A program made the translations under genes and the position numbers. The notes below the pieces were generated by a model. The model did not search any database. It was not told the DNA's origin and was given only the letters and a program-made list of their open reading frames with translations. From Pseudobdellovibrionaceae bacterium (GTDB lineage: Bacteria > Bdellovibrionota > Bdellovibrionia > Bdellovibrionales > Bdellovibrionaceae), in the NCBI GenBank assembly GCA_014378775.1, contig JACMMZ010000088.1:1-37525 (forward strand): a DNA stretch of 37,525 bases. Direction: 5' to 3'. The number at the start of each line of letters is the position of its first letter. The stretch's first letter is position 1. Below are positions 27,508 through 36,673 of the stretch, piece after piece.

Positions 27508-29934
27508 TCATTGTCTTAACTTTGCTCCGATCATTTTTTCCGCCGAGGCCATGATCTTATTTACGTTTTCGATAATTTGAGCTTCCGTTAGATCCGCTTC
27601 TCCGCTTTGCAAAGTAACTCGCACGGAAATTGATTTTTGGTTTTGATCCAGTTTGTCGCCTTGATAAATATCAAAAATATGAACGTCTTTGCAAACGCTG
27701 CCTAGGGATTTTTTTACATCAACCATGAAATCACCCATTGTTTTGTTTGAATCGACCACGAATGAAAAATCTCTCTCAACGGCTTGAAATGCGGAAACAG
27801 ATTTGAAACGCATCGGCCGAGGTTGTCCCAGGCAAATGAGATCAAGGTTAAGTTCAGCTACGGCTACATCGACTCGAATTTTTTCTTGTTGAATCAACTG
27901 AGGATGAATTGTTCCGATAAAGCCCACGGCTTTACCTTCAACCAGAATCTGAGCACTTTGTCCGAAATGAAGAAAAGAAACTTTGGCTTCAATTTCTTTA
28001 AACGTGTAGGAATTGATTCCTAACAAAGAAAATAATTTTTCAATTGCGGATCGTACTTTGTAAACATTGGGCGTTGAATTTGAATAAAGACCAAATTCAT
28101 TTCCCCAGGAAGAAATCGCTAAACGATTCGATTCTATGTACCGACCATCTGATTTTGAAAACGCTGGACCGATTTCAAAGAGCTGTCCCCGTTCATTTCC
28201 CATGTGAAAATTCTCCGTGGTATTCTTCCAAATTGAAAAAGATGTTAATCGTCTCATGGAATTCAAATCTTCACTTAAGGGATTACGAATCATGACCGAT
28301 TCATCGTCGATTTTAAATCCATAAGTCTGTAGTGTTTTGGCCGATTGCATGAATTTTTGCTCTTGATCGCGTGAAGTGAAGGCGTAATTAAAAGCCTGCG
28401 AAAATCCGGAAGCTTGCATAACGTTAGAGATTTTATTTTTAAGGATATAAAATGCATCATGTTGCGTTGGCGATCGATCAAATCGAGGTACGGTTTCTTC
28501 GATTTTTTCATACCCGTTGAGTCGCGCGTACTCTTCCACTAGATCCATTTCTTGTTCCATATCAAAGCGGAAAAGCGGTGGCGTGACCGAATAAACTCCG
28601 GTGGATTTTTTGCTGACCTTACACTGAAGTCCCGACATGAATTGTTCAAATAATGAAGCATCCGCCGCGTAACCTAAGCGATCAGAAATAGTTTGAATAT
28701 TTGTTTCAATCGGATTTTTCGTAACCGGTTTTGGATAAACGTCATGATGATTTCCAAAAGCCTCACCACCTGCACACTGTGAAATCAGAAGGACGGCCCG
28801 GTCCAAGGCATCAAGTGTTTGACTGGCATCTACACCCCGAGCGAATCGATAAGCTGAATCGGTTTCAATTCCATTGGCCCTGGCTGATTTTCGGGTGCTG
28901 AGCGCGTTGAAATTAGCACTTTCAATAAAAATATTCTGAGTTTTTTCGCTTACACCAGAATTGAGTCCACCGATAACGCCGGCTAAAGCGACGGCTTTTT
29001 CTCCGTCACAAATTAAAAGCTCATCGCCTTTAAAAGTCAGATCTTGTTCTTTTAATGTTTTAAATTTTTCGTTTGGCTGAGCCTGGCGAACCTGAATGGT
29101 GCTTTTGGCCAGCGAGTCCGCATCGAACGCGTGAAGCGGTTGTCCCATCTCTAGCATCACGTAATTGGTGACGTCGACCACATTGTTAATCGAATTCATA
29201 CCGATGGATTCTAAGCGGGCCTTCAACCATTCAGGACTAGGGCCAATTTTTACACCAGACATGTATCGTCCAGAATAGCGAATACATAGATCTGAATTCA
29301 CTTCTAATTTAATTTTATCAGTGGTCTTCTGATTTGAGAATTTGGAAAATATTTCGATTTTTTTTACCGGGCGATTCAACAGACATCCGATTTCACGAGC
29401 TAAGCCGTAGTGACTTAAGCAGTCGGCACGATTTGGAGTAACCTTTAATTCAAAGGTCACATCACTTTGTCCCGCATAATCAGCGTAAGGCAATCCGATC
29501 GGGGCATCTGCTGGCAAAATAACGATACCTTCGCTAGGCTTATCTACGCCTAATTCTTTAAACGAACATAGCATTCCGTTACTTTCCATGTCTCTAATTT
29601 TTGATTTTTTAATGGCGAAATTTCCCGGTAAAACAGCACCGGGTAAAGCCACAACCACTTTATCACCGGTTTTATGGTTCTGAGCTCCGCACACGATTTG
29701 TGCCGTTACCCCTTTCGCCACTTCAACTTGGCACAGCGAAAGTTTATCCGAGTTTGGGTGTTTATCTTTTAGCGTAATGTGACCAATCACCACATGATTT
29801 AAAGCCTGGGCTTGATCGGTGATTTCTTCGACCTCTAAACCAGCACGCGTAAGTATCGCCGCCAGTTCATCGGTTTTTTTAAAATAGTCCGTCACGTCGA
29901 CGTAGTCATTAAGCCATTGGAGAGAAATTTTCAT
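27508..29934 (-). CDS. pheT: Phenylalanyl-tRNA synthetase beta subunit
   Basis: The beta chain of the alpha2-beta2 enzyme that charges tRNA-Phe; it edits mischarged Tyr and binds the tRNA. From the start: an OB tRNA-binding domain (about 40-150, with VVIGHITLKDKHPNSDKL and VCGAQN), the B3/B4 editing region with GEPLHAFD-like MGQPLHAFD and RFARGVD, B5, a pseudo-catalytic core with NGYEKI, and a C-terminal ferredoxin-like anticodon-binding domain (PRMRFKSVSAFQAVERDFSF-type start, split here). At 808 residues it is standard. The gene lies 25 bases after pheS. Confidence 0.97.
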   Translation of the reverse strand: MKISLQWLNDYVDVTDYFKKTDELAAILTRAGLEVEEITDQAQALNHVVIGHITLKDKHPNSDKLSLCQVEVAKGVTAQIVCGAQNHKTGDKVVVALPGAVLPGNFAIKKSKIRDMESNGMLCSFKELGVDKPSEGIVILPADAPIGLPYADYAGQSDVTFELKVTPNRADCLSHYGLAREIGCLLNRPVKKIEIFSKFSNQKTTDKIKLEVNSDLCIRYSGRYMSGVKIGPSPEWLKARLESIGMNSINNVVDVTNYVMLEMGQPLHAFDADSLAKSTIQVRQAQPNEKFKTLKEQDLTFKGDELLICDGEKAVALAGVIGGLNSGVSEKTQNIFIESANFNALSTRKSARANGIETDSAYRFARGVDASQTLDALDRAVLLISQCAGGEAFGNHHDVYPKPVTKNPIETNIQTISDRLGYAADASLFEQFMSGLQCKVSKKSTGVYSVTPPLFRFDMEQEMDLVEEYARLNGYEKIEETVPRFDRSPTQHDAFYILKNKISNVMQASGFSQAFNYAFTSRDQEQKFMQSAKTLQTYGFKIDDESVMIRNPLSEDLNSMRRLTSFSIWKNTTENFHMGNERGQLFEIGPAFSKSDGRYIESNRLAISSWGNEFGLYSNSTPNVYKVRSAIEKLFSLLGINSYTFKEIEAKVSFLHFGQSAQILVEGKAVGFIGTIHPQLIQQEKIRVDVAVAELNLDLICLGQPRPMRFKSVSAFQAVERDFSFVVDSNKTMGDFMVDVKKSLGSVCKDVHIFDIYQGDKLDQNQKSISVRVTLQSGEADLTEAQIIENVNKIMASAEKMIGAKLRQ

Positions 29935-29959
29935 ATATTTTACACCTTGAAGTTAAAAA

Positions 29960-30988
29960 TTAAAATTGATTTAAAAACCGGATGTCATTCTTCGGAAAGT
30001 GGCGGATATCATCCACACCATATTTAATGATAGCCATTCGCTCGATCCCGAAGCCAAACGCAAAACCTTGCCACTGCGGATAGGGAATTTTGGCAAATTC
30101 AAAAACTTTAGGATTGATCAGGCCGCAGCCTCCAATTTCAATCCAGCCCGATTGTTTACACAACGAACATCCTTTGCCTTTGCAAATCGGACAGGAGCAA
30201 TCGACTTCGGCTGAAGGTTCAGTGAATGGAAAAAAACTGGGACGAAATCGCGTTTTAAGATTTGGCCCGAAAAATTCTTTTACGAAAAAAGAAATGGTAC
30301 CTTTTAAATCCGCCATGGAAACTTTTTCATCTACGCACATGCCTTCGATTTGATGAAAATTGGGAAGATGCGAAATATCACTGTCGCAGCGAAAAACTGA
30401 ACCGGTTCCGATAATACGTAAAGGTGGTTTTTCATTTTCTAAACTGTGAATTTGAATGGGCGAAGTGTGCGTTCGCAAAACGTGTGATTCGTCCACGAAG
30501 AAAGTATCTTGCATGTCGCGCGCCGGATGATTGGGCGGAATATTAAGCGCTTCAAAATTGTAGTAATCTTTTTCAATTAACGGACCTGTTCTTAAACTAT
30601 AACCTAACCGAGACATAATCGAGACGATTTCATTGGTCACTTTAAAAATGGGATGCTCGTGCCCCAGTGGGAAGCTTGCGGCCGAAAATGAAAGGTCTAA
30701 TTTTTCATTCTGCATTTTTGCATCAATTTCTTTATTTTTTATTTTCGATTCAATATCAAAGTAAACGGTTTCTAATTCCGCTTTTACCTCATTGACTAAT
30801 TTACCAAAAAGCGGCTTATCCTCTTTCGGGAGAGCCGCCATTAACTTCATAGCTTCGGTCAAGGCACCGGACTTACCTAAATACTGCACTTTGAAGTTGT
30901 AAAGCTCAGCGGTGCTTTGGGCTTTTGTAAAATCTTTAATCGCGCTGTCTTTGATACTTTTGAGTTGGTTTTGAACGTTGTTTTCCAT
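29960..30988 (-). CDS. pheS: Phenylalanyl-tRNA synthetase alpha subunit
   Basis: The catalytic chain of the phenylalanyl-tRNA synthetase. N-terminal coiled-coil arm (about residues 1-90), then class II motifs: [32 protein letters not shown] (motif 2) and [11 protein letters not shown] (motif 3). The [17 protein letters not shown] segment is the cysteine-rich insert common in bacterial PheS. Length 342. It precedes pheT in the usual order and diverges from rsmG. Confidence 0.98.
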
Positions 30989-31078
30989 AATATTTCCTTG
31001 AAAGCTTATTATAGAATTTATTTAAGTCTTTTCAAGAGTTTAGCCGTATGATATGTAAGTATTCTCAAGGCGGATATT

Positions 31079-31906
31079 GTGGCGCATAAAAATAAAGAAA
31101 ATTACAGCCCCTATAAAGCTCGACAAGAAAAAGCCGGTCGTAATCTAAAGGACAAAAGCATCGTTGATCAGCAAAAAGGCACCCACAAGAAGCCCGACCA
31201 AGTCTTCAGTGTGGCCGAAGCAAATAACCGGATGTACGATATTTTCAAAAATCATGATTTTAAATGCTCTCACGAAGAACGCCAGAAACTGGCTGAATTC
31301 TATGCCCTGCTGATGGAAAACCAAGAGAACAAAAACTTCACGCGGTTGTTAAAATTAAAAGATATCGCCATCAAACATTTCATCGATTGTCTGATTATCA
31401 CCGAGCTGACTGAACTTAAATTCCCTTTGCTTGATGTCGGAACCGGGCCAGGATTTCCCGGGATTCCGCTTAAAATTCGCTATCCAAATGAAAAGATACT
31501 ATTAGCCGAAGGTGTTCAAAAACGCGTTGAATTCTTAAAACAGGCACGCGAAAAAATGAAGCTTGAAAACTTAGATATTATCGGGCGCAATATCAATCCC
31601 TATTTCGAATATCCAGTTCAAGGTGTCATCACTCGCGCCGTCGAAGATATTTCAAACACCTTACGAAACGTTCTAAGTTGTCTTCAAGAAGGTGGCTGTG
31701 TGTACTTCATGAAGGGGCCCGGAGTTAATCCGGAAATTGACCAAGTTCCTGAAGATCTCAAAAATTATTACGAGCTTCATGCGGATCACGTTTATGATTT
31801 ACCTAAAACAGAAAATCATCGGCGCCTCGTGATCTATAAAAAAATCAAAAATGCTCCTTTACCTGAAGATGAAGACAACGATATTTTATTGAATGAAAGT
31901 TTTTAG
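31079..31906 (+). CDS. rsmG: 16S rRNA m7G527 methyltransferase RsmG-like
   Basis: RsmG methylates G527 of 16S rRNA using SAM. The core is plain: NFTRLLKLKDIAIKHFIDCLI, the SAM motif LDVGTGPGFPGIPLKI, and ITRAVEDI in place of the SRA-type loop. The protein is longer than usual (275 residues): about 45 Lys/Arg/Gln-rich residues precede the domain (HKNKENYSPYKARQEK) and an acidic tail follows (PEDEDNDILLNES). The GTG start has AAGG upstream; a later Met (in NNRMYD) is a possible shorter start. The SpoU-type gene follows 3 bases later. Confidence 0.9.
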   Translation: MAHKNKENYSPYKARQEKAGRNLKDKSIVDQQKGTHKKPDQVFSVAEANNRMYDIFKNHDFKCSHEERQKLAEFYALLMENQENKNFTRLLKLKDIAIKHFIDCLIITELTELKFPLLDVGTGPGFPGIPLKIRYPNEKILLAEGVQKRVEFLKQAREKMKLENLDIIGRNINPYFEYPVQGVITRAVEDISNTLRNVLSCLQEGGCVYFMKGPGVNPEIDQVPEDLKNYYELHADHVYDLPKTENHRRLVIYKKIKNAPLPEDEDNDILLNESF

Positions 31907-31909
31907 ATT

Positions 31910-32665
31910 ATGAAAACACTGGAAATTGGATCAAAAGATAATCCGACCTTTAGGAAATTGAAACAGCTTTTAACATCAAAAGGCATCAAAGATGAAAAAT
32001 CTTTTTTTCTGATGGGTGAAAAACTCATTGAAGAATTTTTGCAAAAACCCCATCCTGATTTCAAAATCAAAAATGTAGTGACTTTTGAAGGCCAAGAACT
32101 TCCACTTTTAGATTCTCAAATTAAATTAAAAAAGGAATTGTTCAATGAATTAGACGTGCTCGGCACGCATTATCCCATGCTGGTTTTAGAACATAAAGAT
32201 TTGAATGAATTTAATTTTCAGGAACAACCGGTGGGCTTAGAAGTTATTTCTCCATTAGGTGATCCTAAAAATTTAGGGGCACTGGCCAGGTCAGCACTGG
32301 CATTCGGGGCTTCAAAATTAATCTTAACTCACGATTCGTGTCATCCCTTTTTGCCTCACACGATTAAGTCTTCTGCCGGAGCAATCCTGAATCTACCAGT
32401 TTATTTAGGGAAGATAAAATTAAATCAAATTCCCATGGTTGGGTTTAATGTGGCGCTGGATTTAGAAGGGGAAAAGATTCGAGATTTCAAATGGAATAAA
32501 AATCTGCGATTATTCATCGGAGAAGAAGGACCGGGCATTGATTTAACACCCGATCAAAAAAGAAAAATTCAGTTTGTGTCAATTCCGATGAACTCAATGA
32601 TCGAATCGCTCAACGCAACCGTTTCGGCGTCAATTGCCATGTGGGAATGGCGATCGTCTACTTAA
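31910..32665 (+). CDS. SpoU/TrmH-family RNA 2'-O-methyltransferase
   Basis: SPOUT enzymes methylate ribose 2'-OH groups in rRNA or tRNA. The three motifs are ISPLGDPKNLGALARSALAFGA (motif 1), LFIGEEGPGID (motif 2) and VSIPMNSMIESLNATVSASIAMWEW (motif 3, the SAM knot). The N-terminal 110 residues contain a substrate-binding part (SFFLMGEKLIEEFL). Resembles the RlmB/TsnR branch, but the target site cannot be read. Next to rsmG, so this is a small rRNA/tRNA-modification operon. Its end overlaps the convergent secreted-protein gene by 8 bases. Confidence 0.93.
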   Translation: MKTLEIGSKDNPTFRKLKQLLTSKGIKDEKSFFLMGEKLIEEFLQKPHPDFKIKNVVTFEGQELPLLDSQIKLKKELFNELDVLGTHYPMLVLEHKDLNEFNFQEQPVGLEVISPLGDPKNLGALARSALAFGASKLILTHDSCHPFLPHTIKSSAGAILNLPVYLGKIKLNQIPMVGFNVALDLEGEKIRDFKWNKNLRLFIGEEGPGIDLTPDQKRKIQFVSIPMNSMIESLNATVSASIAMWEWRSST

Positions 32666-33421: not shown

Positions 33422-34090
33422 ATGATGAAATTAACTTTAGTTTTAACGGCTCTGATCGCATTAACTTCGTGTGGTAACACCAAAGAAGAAACGAATTCGA
33501 ATAATATAAATACTTTCGCATCGACAGCTAACAAAACGTTGGCCAGCTGTAATAAAAAATCGACCGCAGATATTGGTTTAAGTTCAACTGCAGTTCAAGA
33601 TCAAATGGGAACTCAAGATAACAATTGGCTCAAAATTAAAATGACTTTCCTTTCAACTAAAGCCACGGCTTCGGGAAATATTTTGAAATTTTTTAAATGG
33701 AAAATGGTCAACGGCGCGGCTTATTTAGATCAAACACCAATAAGTTTTTACACTTACAACATTTCATCTGGGGTATCTTCAACCACAGCCGTCACTCAGA
33801 TTACAGCGGCTTCGGTTAATTCTTCAATCGGTTACAACATTTATCTAAACGATTTAAGCGGAACTTACCAAGTTATCAAAGCAGTAGTTTACTCATCTGA
33901 TGGCGCAGTTATCGCGCAATCTGATTCTTTGATTCCACAGTTTTTGTCAAACCCAGCTCAGTATGCAATAAATTCTGACGGTTCGGCTCGATCTTCGAAT
34001 CTTCAAGCTTTACATCCTTTAAACTCGACCAACACGACGTCGTGGAATGAAGCTCAATTCACAAATTATTTTCAAGCATTTTGCTTTTAA
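33422..34090 (+). CDS. Predicted lipoprotein, 222 aa
   Basis: A lipoprotein signal: MMKLTLVLTALIALTSCGN with the lipobox LTSC, so the mature N-terminal Cys17 would be lipidated; residues GNTKEE at +2 and on do not carry an Asp +2 inner-membrane retention signal. The body is Ser/Thr/Asn-rich and looks beta-type (ISFYTYNISSGVSSTT...), without recognised domain. AGGGGG lies 5 bases before the start. Convergent with the PDEIW-domain gene, with 1 base between the stops. Function unknown. Confidence 0.8.
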   Translation: MMKLTLVLTALIALTSCGNTKEETNSNNINTFASTANKTLASCNKKSTADIGLSSTAVQDQMGTQDNNWLKIKMTFLSTKATASGNILKFFKWKMVNGAAYLDQTPISFYTYNISSGVSSTTAVTQITAASVNSSIGYNIYLNDLSGTYQVIKAVVYSSDGAVIAQSDSLIPQFLSNPAQYAINSDGSARSSNLQALHPLNSTNTTSWNEAQFTNYFQAFCF

Positions 34091-34091
34091 T

Positions 34092-35090
34092 TTAATGCGA
34101 ACTTTCGGTGGAAACTTCTTCCGCTTCCAGATTTTCCCCCTGGCGGTACCGTTCAAGAAGACTTAAATCAGTAGTTGGAAATGAAAACAAGAGTGAATGT
34201 ACTTGAGTTTCTGGCTCTTCTTCAGTGATGACCAAATAATGAAGATCTTTTTCGTTTGATTCGCTGACTTCTTTTATAAAATTCACTAAGATGTTTCCTT
34301 CAGAACTGACTTGACGCCAAATTTCATCAGGATTATTAATCGTATCATCTCGAAATTCGGCATATTCTTTAAATTTATCAGTAGGTATATCTTTATCTGA
34401 GCGAAGCTTTATCATAGATTCTAGTAAACCGATGGCTAAATAATCCCCTTCTAAGAGCGAATCTCCTTCGAGCGCGGCAAACTGAACCGATTCAAGTTTA
34501 CTATGATAAATAATTTCTTTTTCTCGGAAAACTTCCGTCAAGTTAGCGTCGACGGTGGCAAAATGTAGGAAAACAAAAGTGGGGTAATTTTCTTCCGAAT
34601 TCAAATAAACAATCGCGACGTAATTAAAAACGTCGTCCCCGTCTTGAACTTCTTTAACTAGAGTATACACGACTAAGTCATCGAAAGTATCTGTATTAGC
34701 CCAAATCTCGTCGGGATCATCTAAAGTTTCATCTAACCAGTAATCTAAATTATCGATTTCTTCGCGCGAAAAATCGATTTTAAAATCATAATTTTTCAAA
34801 TATTTATCTTCGATGGCTTTGATGGTGTTTGCAAAATATCCGTAAAGTGTTTTTTCATTTTCGAAAATAAGCCCTTTGGCTTCATCGACAACGATCAACT
34901 CTTTGTCTTGAAACTTTTTTGTGGTCTTACGCATCTTGATTTTTGACGTTCGCTTTTGAATCGACGAAGCCTTGAGTTTTTCTTTAGCCTTACTTTTGGT
35001 TTTAACTTTTATTTTAATATTTTTCGATTTCACTTTTGATGCGACAGAAGATTCGATCTTTTTGTTTAATTTACCAGCAGGCTTTGTCAT
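34092..35090 (-). CDS. Basic-tailed protein with two PDEIW-type (PBECR-like) domains
   Basis: The ORF track start (35231) precedes any ribosome site; ATG 35090 has GGAG 8 bases upstream and gives 332 residues. Residues 1-60 are strongly basic (KVKSKNIKIKVKTKSK, QKRTSKIKMRK), a likely nucleic-acid-binding tail. Then come two copies of one domain: 118-190 (ETLDDPDEIWANTD, FATVDANL) and 246-317 (DDTINNPDEIWRQVS, FPTTDLSL), about 70 residues each with matched strands. The PDEIW motif and layout resemble the PBECR2 group (phage Barnase-EndoU-ColicinE5/D-RelE-like nuclease fold). Whether either copy is catalytic cannot be judged. No partner toxin or immunity gene is obvious. Confidence 0.55.
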   Translation of the reverse strand: MTKPAGKLNKKIESSVASKVKSKNIKIKVKTKSKAKEKLKASSIQKRTSKIKMRKTTKKFQDKELIVVDEAKGLIFENEKTLYGYFANTIKAIEDKYLKNYDFKIDFSREEIDNLDYWLDETLDDPDEIWANTDTFDDLVVYTLVKEVQDGDDVFNYVAIVYLNSEENYPTFVFLHFATVDANLTEVFREKEIIYHSKLESVQFAALEGDSLLEGDYLAIGLLESMIKLRSDKDIPTDKFKEYAEFRDDTINNPDEIWRQVSSEGNILVNFIKEVSESNEKDLHYLVITEEEPETQVHSLLFSFPTTDLSLLERYRQGENLEAEEVSTESSH

Positions 35091-35224
35091 GATGTAATCT
35101 CCACTGCTGAATATCGTAGCGAGAAACATCACGCATGTAAAAGAAACTTGATGACTTACTAAGTCATCAAAAAGGCTTCTTGATACTTTTTCCTTCGTCT
35201 TTAGACTTTTGAATTGAGGTACCG

Positions 35225-35554
35225 GTGTCAAAAATTGACGTTTATTTAGATGAAAAACAAATCGATAATCTGAAAATGATTCTCAATCAGTCGCACGTCG
35301 GTATACATCTACTTTTTGACAATCAATTTATCTCTCAAGTCTTCAAACAAGATTTCAAAGAAGACGATTTTTTTACCGTGGAAAATTTGGTCCGCGCCCA
35401 GGAAGATCTGATTCGATTAATTAAGGCTCAAACCATCGAACAAAAAAAAACATTTATTTCGAAATTAAATTGTGAACAGCAAAATCGCTTAGTTCGGGCT
35501 TACTTCTACATCATTGAAAACGATATCAAACAGAATCAATCTCGCCCGCACTAA
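35225..35554 (+). CDS. Hypothetical helical cytoplasmic protein, 109 aa
   Basis: Starts at GTG, with GAGG 6 bases upstream. The protein is charged and predicted mostly helical (DVYLDEKQIDNLKMILNQ..., EDLIRLIKAQTIEQKKTFISKL), with no signal or membrane segment. It is divergent from the PDEIW-domain gene, its start lying 134 bases from that ATG. No family recognised; it could be a partner of that neighbour or unrelated. Confidence 0.6.
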   Translation: MSKIDVYLDEKQIDNLKMILNQSHVGIHLLFDNQFISQVFKQDFKEDDFFTVENLVRAQEDLIRLIKAQTIEQKKTFISKLNCEQQNRLVRAYFYIIENDIKQNQSRPH

Positions 35555-35606: not shown

Positions 35607-35897
35607 ATGCGGATGGGTCTTACAATTTTTTTGGCTCTGATATCTCTGTCGGTCAAAGCGGAATACCGCATGTTTGTACTTGAGATCAATAATAGCAAGA
35701 TGCAAAAATCAAGAACCGTTTACAGCACGATGGATCCCCTTCAGTACAAAACGATCTATCCTTTAGCGGCTGACGAGAGTATCAAATACTCCTCAACTTG
35801 GAGATGCAGAGGCAACACCAGTGGGTTCAAAATTCACTGTGCTCGTCCATTAGATAAAATAGCTGAAAATCAGTCGCAAGATTCACCCCAGAACTAA
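35607..35897 (+). CDS. Hypothetical small exported protein, 96 aa
   Basis: A signal peptide (MRMGLTIFLALISLSVKA, probable cleavage after VKA-E) precedes a small domain with two cysteines (in TWRCRG and KIHCAR), probably a disulfide pair in the periplasm. The end is polar (ENQSQDSPQN). Either of the first two methionines could be the start; no strong ribosome site marks either. It lies 52 bases after the helical 109-residue gene. No domain recognised. Confidence 0.6.
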   Translation: MRMGLTIFLALISLSVKAEYRMFVLEINNSKMQKSRTVYSTMDPLQYKTIYPLAADESIKYSSTWRCRGNTSGFKIHCARPLDKIAENQSQDSPQN

Positions 35898-35933: not shown

Positions 35934-35960
35934 TATTTTGACTTAAATTGAGTCAAAATA
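35934..35960 (+). repeat. Perfect 10-bp inverted repeat, 7-base loop, in the hsp20-like leader
   Basis: TATTTTGACT (35934-35943) and AGTCAAAATA (35951-35960) are exact complements around TAAATTG. The element ends 5 bases before the preferred ATG (35966). It could be an operator overlapping the transcript start or an RNA hairpin that covers the start region, for example a thermosensor. Core spacing differs from CIRCE (9 bases). Confidence 0.75.
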
Positions 35961-35965
35961 AAAAG

Positions 35966-36673
35966 ATGTCAACCACCATTAAACCTAAATTGGATACGCA
36001 ACTCAAACGTCAAATTTCACAAGGCATGAGTGAAAGAAGAACTGAGCAAACATCACAACAGCTTGAGAGTTTAAAAAATTTGGGCCAAGCCATTAAACAA
36101 AGCCATGCTGATCAGCGAGCAGTCGCCAATGCAACTCACGCGGTTAACCACATACAATCAAAAGATGATGTCACTTCAAATAGCGACAGCACCCGATTGT
36201 ATACACGGCAAGGAAAGCTCGAAAATCTGAACGCCAGTGATATCGCGGATCCTGAAGTTGAAGATGCTGAAGACCGTTTTGTTCGTCATAAAAATGAAAA
36301 GTCTGATACTCAAGAAGCTCAGCAGGTAGCCAGAGATCAAGATGAATTTTATCAGGTGAAAGACCGTGGAAATACTATCAAAGAAGATTCGCAAGGCTAT
36401 TACATCGACGCCTATGCTCCAGAACATGAAAAAGCCGGCGTGCGTGTTTCGATCACTCATGATAAGGCGGTTATTTCGGGAAGTCGCAAAGCCGAAGCGG
36501 AAGAATCAAATGCTCGAGGAAAGATGGTCACCAACAACTTTCAAACCTTTCGTGAAGAATTTAAATTTGACACCCCGGTCGTGGCAAATGGCATGACCCG
36601 AGAACGTTCAGGTGACTATATTCGTTTTTTCATACCTAAATTAGGTGTAAGTGATGGATCCGACGAATCCTAA
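35966..36673 (+). CDS. Hsp20-like (alpha-crystallin-type) domain protein with long N-terminus
   Basis: The C-terminal 95 residues match the small heat-shock fold: GYYIDAYAPEHEKAGVRVSITHDKAVISGSRKAE, then FQTFREEFKFDTPV, then RSGDYIRFFIPK, close to the Hsp20 pattern VxVxAPG-x-VxVxxxxLxIxGxR...FxRxFxLP...xGxLxIxIPK. The N-terminal 140 residues are polar, helical and coiled-coil-like (KRQISQGMSERRTEQTSQQLE), much longer than usual for Hsp20. The ORF track begins at TTG 35948, inside the inverted repeat; I prefer ATG 35966. No upstream chaperone gene. Chaperone activity inferred from the fold only. Confidence 0.68.
   Translation: MSTTIKPKLDTQLKRQISQGMSERRTEQTSQQLESLKNLGQAIKQSHADQRAVANATHAVNHIQSKDDVTSNSDSTRLYTRQGKLENLNASDIADPEVEDAEDRFVRHKNEKSDTQEAQQVARDQDEFYQVKDRGNTIKEDSQGYYIDAYAPEHEKAGVRVSITHDKAVISGSRKAEAEESNARGKMVTNNFQTFREEFKFDTPVVANGMTRERSGDYIRFFIPKLGVSDGSDES

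What the first reader, a model, noticed from the sequence alone, without database searches (positions are those of the whole stretch)
34092..35090. Internally duplicated PDEIW domain behind a lysine-rich tail
Two ~70-residue units with the same DxxxxDPDEIW / NNPDEIW opening and matching strand order occur in one protein. The motif resembles PBECR2, a phage-derived nuclease fold normally found once in polyvalent proteins. A double copy with a strongly basic N-terminus, in a patch of lipoprotein and small unknown genes, could be an RNA- or DNA-acting effector or a non-catalytic binding derivative.
Basis: partly seen in the sequence, partly recalled or inferred. Interest (0 to 1): 0.6.

Follow-up and report, generated by a model that had tools for sequence, protein, structure and literature searches.

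The report
Domesticated double phage-nuclease-fold core protein
A fold known from phage-injected RNA-cutting proteins has been doubled and kept as a single-copy gene across most families of the predatory-bacteria phylum Bdellovibrionota, next to a conserved set of unknown genes, and it has probably lost RNA cutting in favour of binding other proteins.

Summary
Window 34092-35090 (-) encodes 332 residues: a Lys-rich disordered tail and two homologous units. Each half alone passes the Pfam PBECR2 (PF18810) cut-off, and the halves match each other (hhalign 99.4%, E 5.5e-21; shuffled controls below 1%). It is not a mobile effector. It is a strongly constrained single-copy gene found in 96 of 100 relatives and 221 of 291 genomes sampled across the phylum, divergent from a conserved neighbour (g109), a small secreted protein and a coiled-coil/Hsp20 protein. 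The duplication predates the families examined. Neither half has the conserved active-site His; an invariant Arg takes its place in unit B, and the strand-4 Thr is not conserved at the aligned position. Both units are acidic, unlike most phage copies. Two reduced genomes keep only unit B. A conserved C-terminal His is shared with g109. Best reading: a domesticated, probably non-nucleolytic binding module in which B is the working half and A the degenerate one; its partner is unknown. The domain family is known; I found no description of the phylum-core tandem form or its gene cluster in the literature I could search.

The parts
34092..35090 (-). CDS of the tandem PBECR2 protein, 332 aa
34905..35090 (-). 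Lys-rich disordered N-terminal tail, residues 1-62; longer in this genus (median tail of the order 13 aa)
   Evidence: (pLDDT below 50)
34476..34895 (-). Unit A, residues 66-205 (PF18810 match at 118-195); degenerate copy, D102 at the position aligned with the catalytic His
34125..34475 (-). Unit B, residues 206-322; best-conserved copy; R230, D234, F240, E256, P305, G318 invariant in 99 orthologs
34401..34403 (-). Codon of R230, aligned with the catalytic His of phage PBECR2
34092..34136 (-). Conserved C-terminal tail (residues 319-332, ...ESSH-COOH) and stop
35148..35170 (.). Palindrome TTGATGACTTACTAAGTCATCAA between the divergent genes (core TGAC-N7-GTCA at 35152-35166); operator-like
   Evidence: a terminator-like reading on the - strand is
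35225..35554 (+). g109: divergent conserved partner, 109 aa, no known family, conserved C-terminal His
35607..35897 (+). g96: small protein with apparent signal peptide, conserved neighbour
35948..36673 (+). Coiled-coil protein with C-terminal Hsp20-like domain, conserved neighbour; shortened in this genus
33422..34090 (+). Lipoprotein-like gene on the other side, partly conserved neighbour

Best explanation
A PBECR2-fold domain was duplicated before the Bdellovibrionota families examined split, and was domesticated as a cytosolic, probably non-nucleolytic binding module. Unit B is the working half: its invariant Arg/Asp/Glu pocket and its C-terminal tail contact a partner. Unit A is a degenerate copy that stabilises or widens the surface. 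It works with products of the divergent cluster, most likely g109, with which it shares a conserved C-terminal His and an operator-like palindrome. The Lys-rich tail is a genus-level add-on. Shown by computation: homology to PBECR2, duplication, distribution, constraint, synteny, invariant residues, charge. Inferred: loss of nuclease activity, protein binding, partnership with g109.
For: PF18810 in both halves and 80/80 orthologs; a phage-only profile matches A at 96.7% and B at 96.9%, with 20 shuffled and 4 unrelated controls at or below 3.4%. Present in 96/100 and 221/291 genomes, nearly always once. dN/dS about 0.02 against a 92%-identical ortholog, with dS near saturation. All A units form one clade (support 0.87). 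No conserved His in the N-terminal helix of either unit. Net charge medians A -17 and B -15.5 in the order, -13 and -15 in other families, against +4 for 28 phage domains and -8 to +5 for eight Mu-like ones. B-only proteins in two 1.2-1.3 Mb genomes keep the tail and the invariant residues. g109 is beside it in 78/80 loci and in most distant families. C-terminal His 80/80 and 77/78 against a 4% background. TGAC-N7-GTCA in 11/11 genus loci.
Against: An Arg at the His position is an accepted variant in one PBECR family (PMC5512222), and S303, invariant in the order, is one residue from the aligned Thr, so activity is not excluded. Acidic nucleases exist. g109 is not strictly coupled: three genomes of the order have g109 without the gene and four have the gene without a detected g109. 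The terminal His is missing in some distant families. No interaction was tested.
Confidence: 0.5

Rival explanations
1. Unit B is an active housekeeping RNase of the Arg variant of the PBECR active site, with A as a pseudo-domain that positions substrate.
For: R230 invariant in 99/99 at the catalytic His position; T/S306 in 99/99 and S303 invariant in the order; the PDB matches of unit B with the highest probabilities are chains of 6cp9, a BECR tRNase toxin complex (PMC9086364), though at E 0.24-0.59.
Against: The Thr position itself aligns to F302 in all order members and mostly D/E/F/Y elsewhere; strongly acidic.
Confidence: 0.2
2. The protein (or g109) is a transcription autoregulator that binds the intergenic palindrome and couples the divergent genes.
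For: Conserved TGAC-N7-GTCA between the genes, 25/74 loci with exactly 7 bases between the arms and 11/11 in the genus; one such palindrome in the genome; basic tail in this genus.
Against: The palindrome is missing from most of the order (48/74) although the genes remain; acidic domains; no DNA-binding family; the hairpin can also be read as a terminator.
Confidence: 0.12
3. Toxin-antitoxin or toxin-immunity pair made of the tandem PBECR2 protein and g109.
For: Divergent neighbours, small and mostly acidic g109; BECR folds are common toxins (PMC11980606, PMC3482391).
Against: Nearly always single-copy, phylum-wide, syntenic; gene kept without detected g109 and g109 kept without the gene; no PADLOC match for the protein.
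Confidence: 0.06
4. Recently acquired phage or mobile-element effector.
For: The fold is otherwise typical of phage proteins.
Against: No relative in viral contigs, phages or plasmids at a meaningful E-value; no PHROG match; order-wide synteny with MutS2, Lnt and other chromosomal genes.
Confidence: 0.02

Closest known systems
Pfam PF18810 PBECR2 in MuF/portal fusion proteins of phages (PMC5512222)
   Same: Profile match of each half; PDEIW motif, Y/F-I-K strand, R-x-G near the end of the domain; predicted order of helices and strands
   Different: Two adjacent copies in a 332-aa cellular protein; no MuF, portal or metallopeptidase; His position is Arg in B; strand-4 Thr not conserved at the aligned position; strongly acidic; not in a phage
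jhp1044-type polyvalent proteins of Helicobacter (four PBECR domains; PMC5512222)
   Same: Several PBECR domains in one protein
   Different: Those are mosaic, fast-evolving and phage-linked; this one is conserved, syntenic and single-copy
Phage Mu MuF gp30, with an inactive PBECR domain proposed to bind RNA (PMC5512222)
   Same: Precedent for a non-catalytic PBECR domain
   Different: Virion head protein with one such domain
BECR tRNase toxin CdiA-CT of K. pneumoniae 342 (PDB 6cp9; PMC9086364)
   Same: Helices followed by four strands; the highest-probability PDB match of unit B
   Different: Foldseek E 0.24-0.59, TM about 0.37, so not significant; secreted toxin with an immunity protein

Membership tests
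PBECR2 (PF18810) | Profile match above the curated cut-off | tested here: met
   31.3 and 30.4 bits vs 27.1 for the two halves; 80/80 orthologs match; phage-only profile agrees
PBECR2 (PF18810) | Full domain including the N-terminal helix in the Pfam match | tested here: inconclusive
   Pfam match starts at profile position 49 (A) and 29 (B); hhalign extends through the helix at lower confidence
PBECR endoRNase active site | His in the N-terminal helix | tested here: not met
   Aligned residue is R230 in B (99/99) and D102 in A of the window (Arg in about two thirds of orthologs)
PBECR endoRNase active site | Arg in place of His (sixth PBECR family) | tested here: met
   R230 invariant in unit B; not met in unit A of the window (variant described in PMC5512222)
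PBECR endoRNase active site | Ser/Thr in strand 4 | tested here: inconclusive
   Aligned residue F302 in B, L175 in A; S303 is one position away, T306 four
BECR fold | Structure superposes on solved BECR nucleases | tested here: inconclusive
   No PDB match at E 0.001; 6cp9 at probability 0.63-0.72
Polyvalent phage protein | Phage or mobile context, fusion to other effector domains | tested here: not met
   Conserved chromosomal context, no other domain, no viral or plasmid relative
Toxin-antitoxin module | Toxin not kept without its antitoxin | tested here: not met
   Gene present without detected g109 in 4 of 99 genomes of the order/class sample, two of them with unit B only
RNase | Cleavage of RNA | not testable with these tools
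   needs biochemistry

The most novel reading that the evidence does not exclude
A phage-type nuclease fold became an ancestral core part of the Bdellovibrionota cell: unit B and g109 form a complex recognised through matching C-terminal His tails and acting with the coiled-coil/Hsp20 neighbour, a lineage-defining module of predatory bacteria that has not been described.
Probability: 0.2. Interest if true: 0.75.

Novelty: new variant of a known kind. Interest (0 to 1): 0.5.

Why it matters
PBECR domains are known as conflict RNases of phages and mobile elements. Here one appears as a conserved core gene of a phylum that includes the predatory bacteria, doubled, re-charged and tied to a conserved cluster. 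It gives a clear case for asking how a conflict nuclease fold is turned into a cellular part, and points to four conserved genes of unknown role that can be tested by gene removal in Bdellovibrio.

Tried and rejected
Sequence search of the PDB with the family profile found nothing. Foldseek of the full model against the PDB and viral models gave only chance-level matches, with rmsd above 10 A in nearly all rows; the single domain did little better. Searches for relatives in viral contigs, phages and plasmids were negative or at E about 5; the one plasmid hit is itself annotated PBECR2 and I did not fetch it, because I could not rule out that it is a virulence plasmid. I first took R230 as proof of lost activity; Mu-like phage copies vary at this position and an Arg family is described, so I withdrew that. 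Toxin-antitoxin coupling was rejected on co-occurrence. Papers on predator-specific families, the AlphaFold-Multimer study and the Tn-seq study showed no mention of PBECR or of a nuclease of this kind in the main-text searches I ran; supplements could not be read, and I could not map the gene to an HD100 locus number.

Full report
What is there. The ORF 34092-35090 on the minus strand encodes 332 residues. Residues 1-62 are Lys-rich (21 K, 2 R, 3 D/E) and predicted disordered. Two units follow. Each half alone scores above the PF18810 cut-off (31.3 and 30.4 bits against 27.1). The halves align at E 9e-9 by BLASTP and at 99.4% probability, E 5.5e-21, by profile comparison, while five column-shuffled controls stay below 1%. 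AlphaFold2 predicts the same order of elements in both, helix-helix-helix-four strands-helix, with pLDDT mostly above 84; unit B alone gives pTM 0.86.

Is it PBECR2 by more than a Pfam label? I pulled viral contigs with the NPDEVW motif and recovered 28 phage PBECR2-like domains; the eight scanned with Pfam all matched PF18810 and all were fused to a MuF domain. Against a profile of these, unit A matches at 96.7% and unit B at 96.9%; 20 shuffled versions reach at most 3.4% and four neighbouring families at most 0.8%. So the homology does not rest on the Pfam model alone.

It is a core gene. A search of 100 relatives found it in 96, at one locus in nearly all; a profile search across the phylum found it in 221 of 291 genomes. 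A scan of one genome per species returned 80 loci; their titles are Bdellovibrionota names or unspecific MAG names, except one labelled Streptomyces griseus, which by similarity and synteny looks mislabelled. Viral contigs, phages and plasmids gave no relative below E about 5. Against a 92%-identical ortholog dN/dS is about 0.02, with synonymous sites near saturation.

The duplication is old. In a tree of A units, B units and phage domains, all 46 A units from near and distant families form one clade (support 0.87); B units are not resolved as one clade. The copies thus split before the families did. Unit B is better conserved than A (mean column entropy 1.70 against 2.17). Two reduced genomes of 1.2-1.3 Mb keep an intact 138-residue protein made of unit B and the C-terminal tail only, a natural hint that B is the working half.

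Active site. The paper that defined PBECR domains describes their active sites as a His in the N-terminal helix plus a strand-4 Ser/Thr, with one of six families using Arg for His (PMC5512222). Separate hhalign runs put R230 of unit B and residue 102 of unit A opposite the phage His. R230 is invariant in 99 of 99 orthologs; residue 102 is Arg in about two thirds and Asp in the window. The strand-4 Thr aligns with F302 in B and L175 in A; a one-residue shift would put S303 there, which is invariant in the order but not beyond. Mu-like PBECR2 copies vary at the His position and keep a Val-Thr in strand 4, which again aligns with F302. I read this as probable but unproven loss of nuclease activity. 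Both units are net acidic in all 99 orthologs (A -29 to -3, B -22 to -3), whereas 28 phage domains have a median of +4 and eight Mu-like copies range from -8 to +5.

Neighbours. The gene is divergent from g109 (35225-35554), a 109-residue protein of no known family, followed by a small apparently secreted protein and a coiled-coil protein with a C-terminal Hsp20-like domain. g109 is found in 78 of 80 loci, the small secreted protein in 63-65 and the Hsp20 protein in 58-61, depending on the query; the arrangement recurs in most distant families examined. Further out lie MutS2, Lnt and a metallopeptidase in many genomes. Co-occurrence is high but not strict: in 99 genomes of the order/class sample 90 have both, 4 the gene only, 3 g109 only, 2 neither (Fisher p 0.03, not corrected for relatedness).

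Two shared features suggest a partnership. First, the last residue is His in 80 of 80 orthologs and in 77 of 78 g109 proteins (the exception is a short fragment), against 4% of other long ORFs in the same loci. In distant families the trait is partly concordant: 8 loci with both, 4 with neither, 4 discordant, one of those truncated. Second, the intergenic region holds TGAC-N7-GTCA in 11 of 11 genus loci and in 25 of 74 loci in all with the same spacing; the window's version occurs once in the genome. It is absent from most of the order, and on one strand it could be a terminator hairpin.

Fold comparison. Foldseek found no significant PDB or viral match. Among weak matches of unit B, three chains of 6cp9, a BECR tRNase toxin complex (PMC9086364; PMC6851490), have the highest probabilities (0.63-0.72), at E 0.24-0.59. 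This is compatible with the BECR fold, not proof of it.

Verdict. The better description is a domesticated, phylum-core tandem PBECR2 protein, probably a binding module. The origin direction (phage to cell or the reverse) is not shown.

Noticed in passing
35225-35554 and homologs: g109 is a conserved protein family of the phylum with no Pfam or NCBIfam entry (QSxxGxHxLFD motif); it is also present in families in which the PBECR2 gene was not found.
   Followed up: partly
35948-36673: The coiled-coil/Hsp20-like protein is about half the length in this genus (241 aa) compared with 430-520 aa in most relatives.
   Followed up: no
L329, L330, L331: Small genomes of the order in which the PBECR2 gene was not found but g109 keeps its C-terminal His; in two of them the lipoprotein-like gene is still beside g109, so the loss looks clean.
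   Followed up: partly
L313:1202-1666, L314:1422-1751: Lysine-rich histone-H1-like repeat proteins (KKATKRKVAKKK) in the two reduced genomes that keep only unit B.
   Followed up: no
L110 (CALQIT020000062.1): A record titled Streptomyces griseus carries a Bdellovibrionota-type locus with synteny; probably a mislabelled MAG.
   Followed up: no
27508-32665: PheS-like and PheT-sized ORFs, GidB/RsmG and a SpoU-type rRNA methylase lie upstream of the cluster in the window; this arrangement was seen in only one of the 80 related loci.
   Followed up: no
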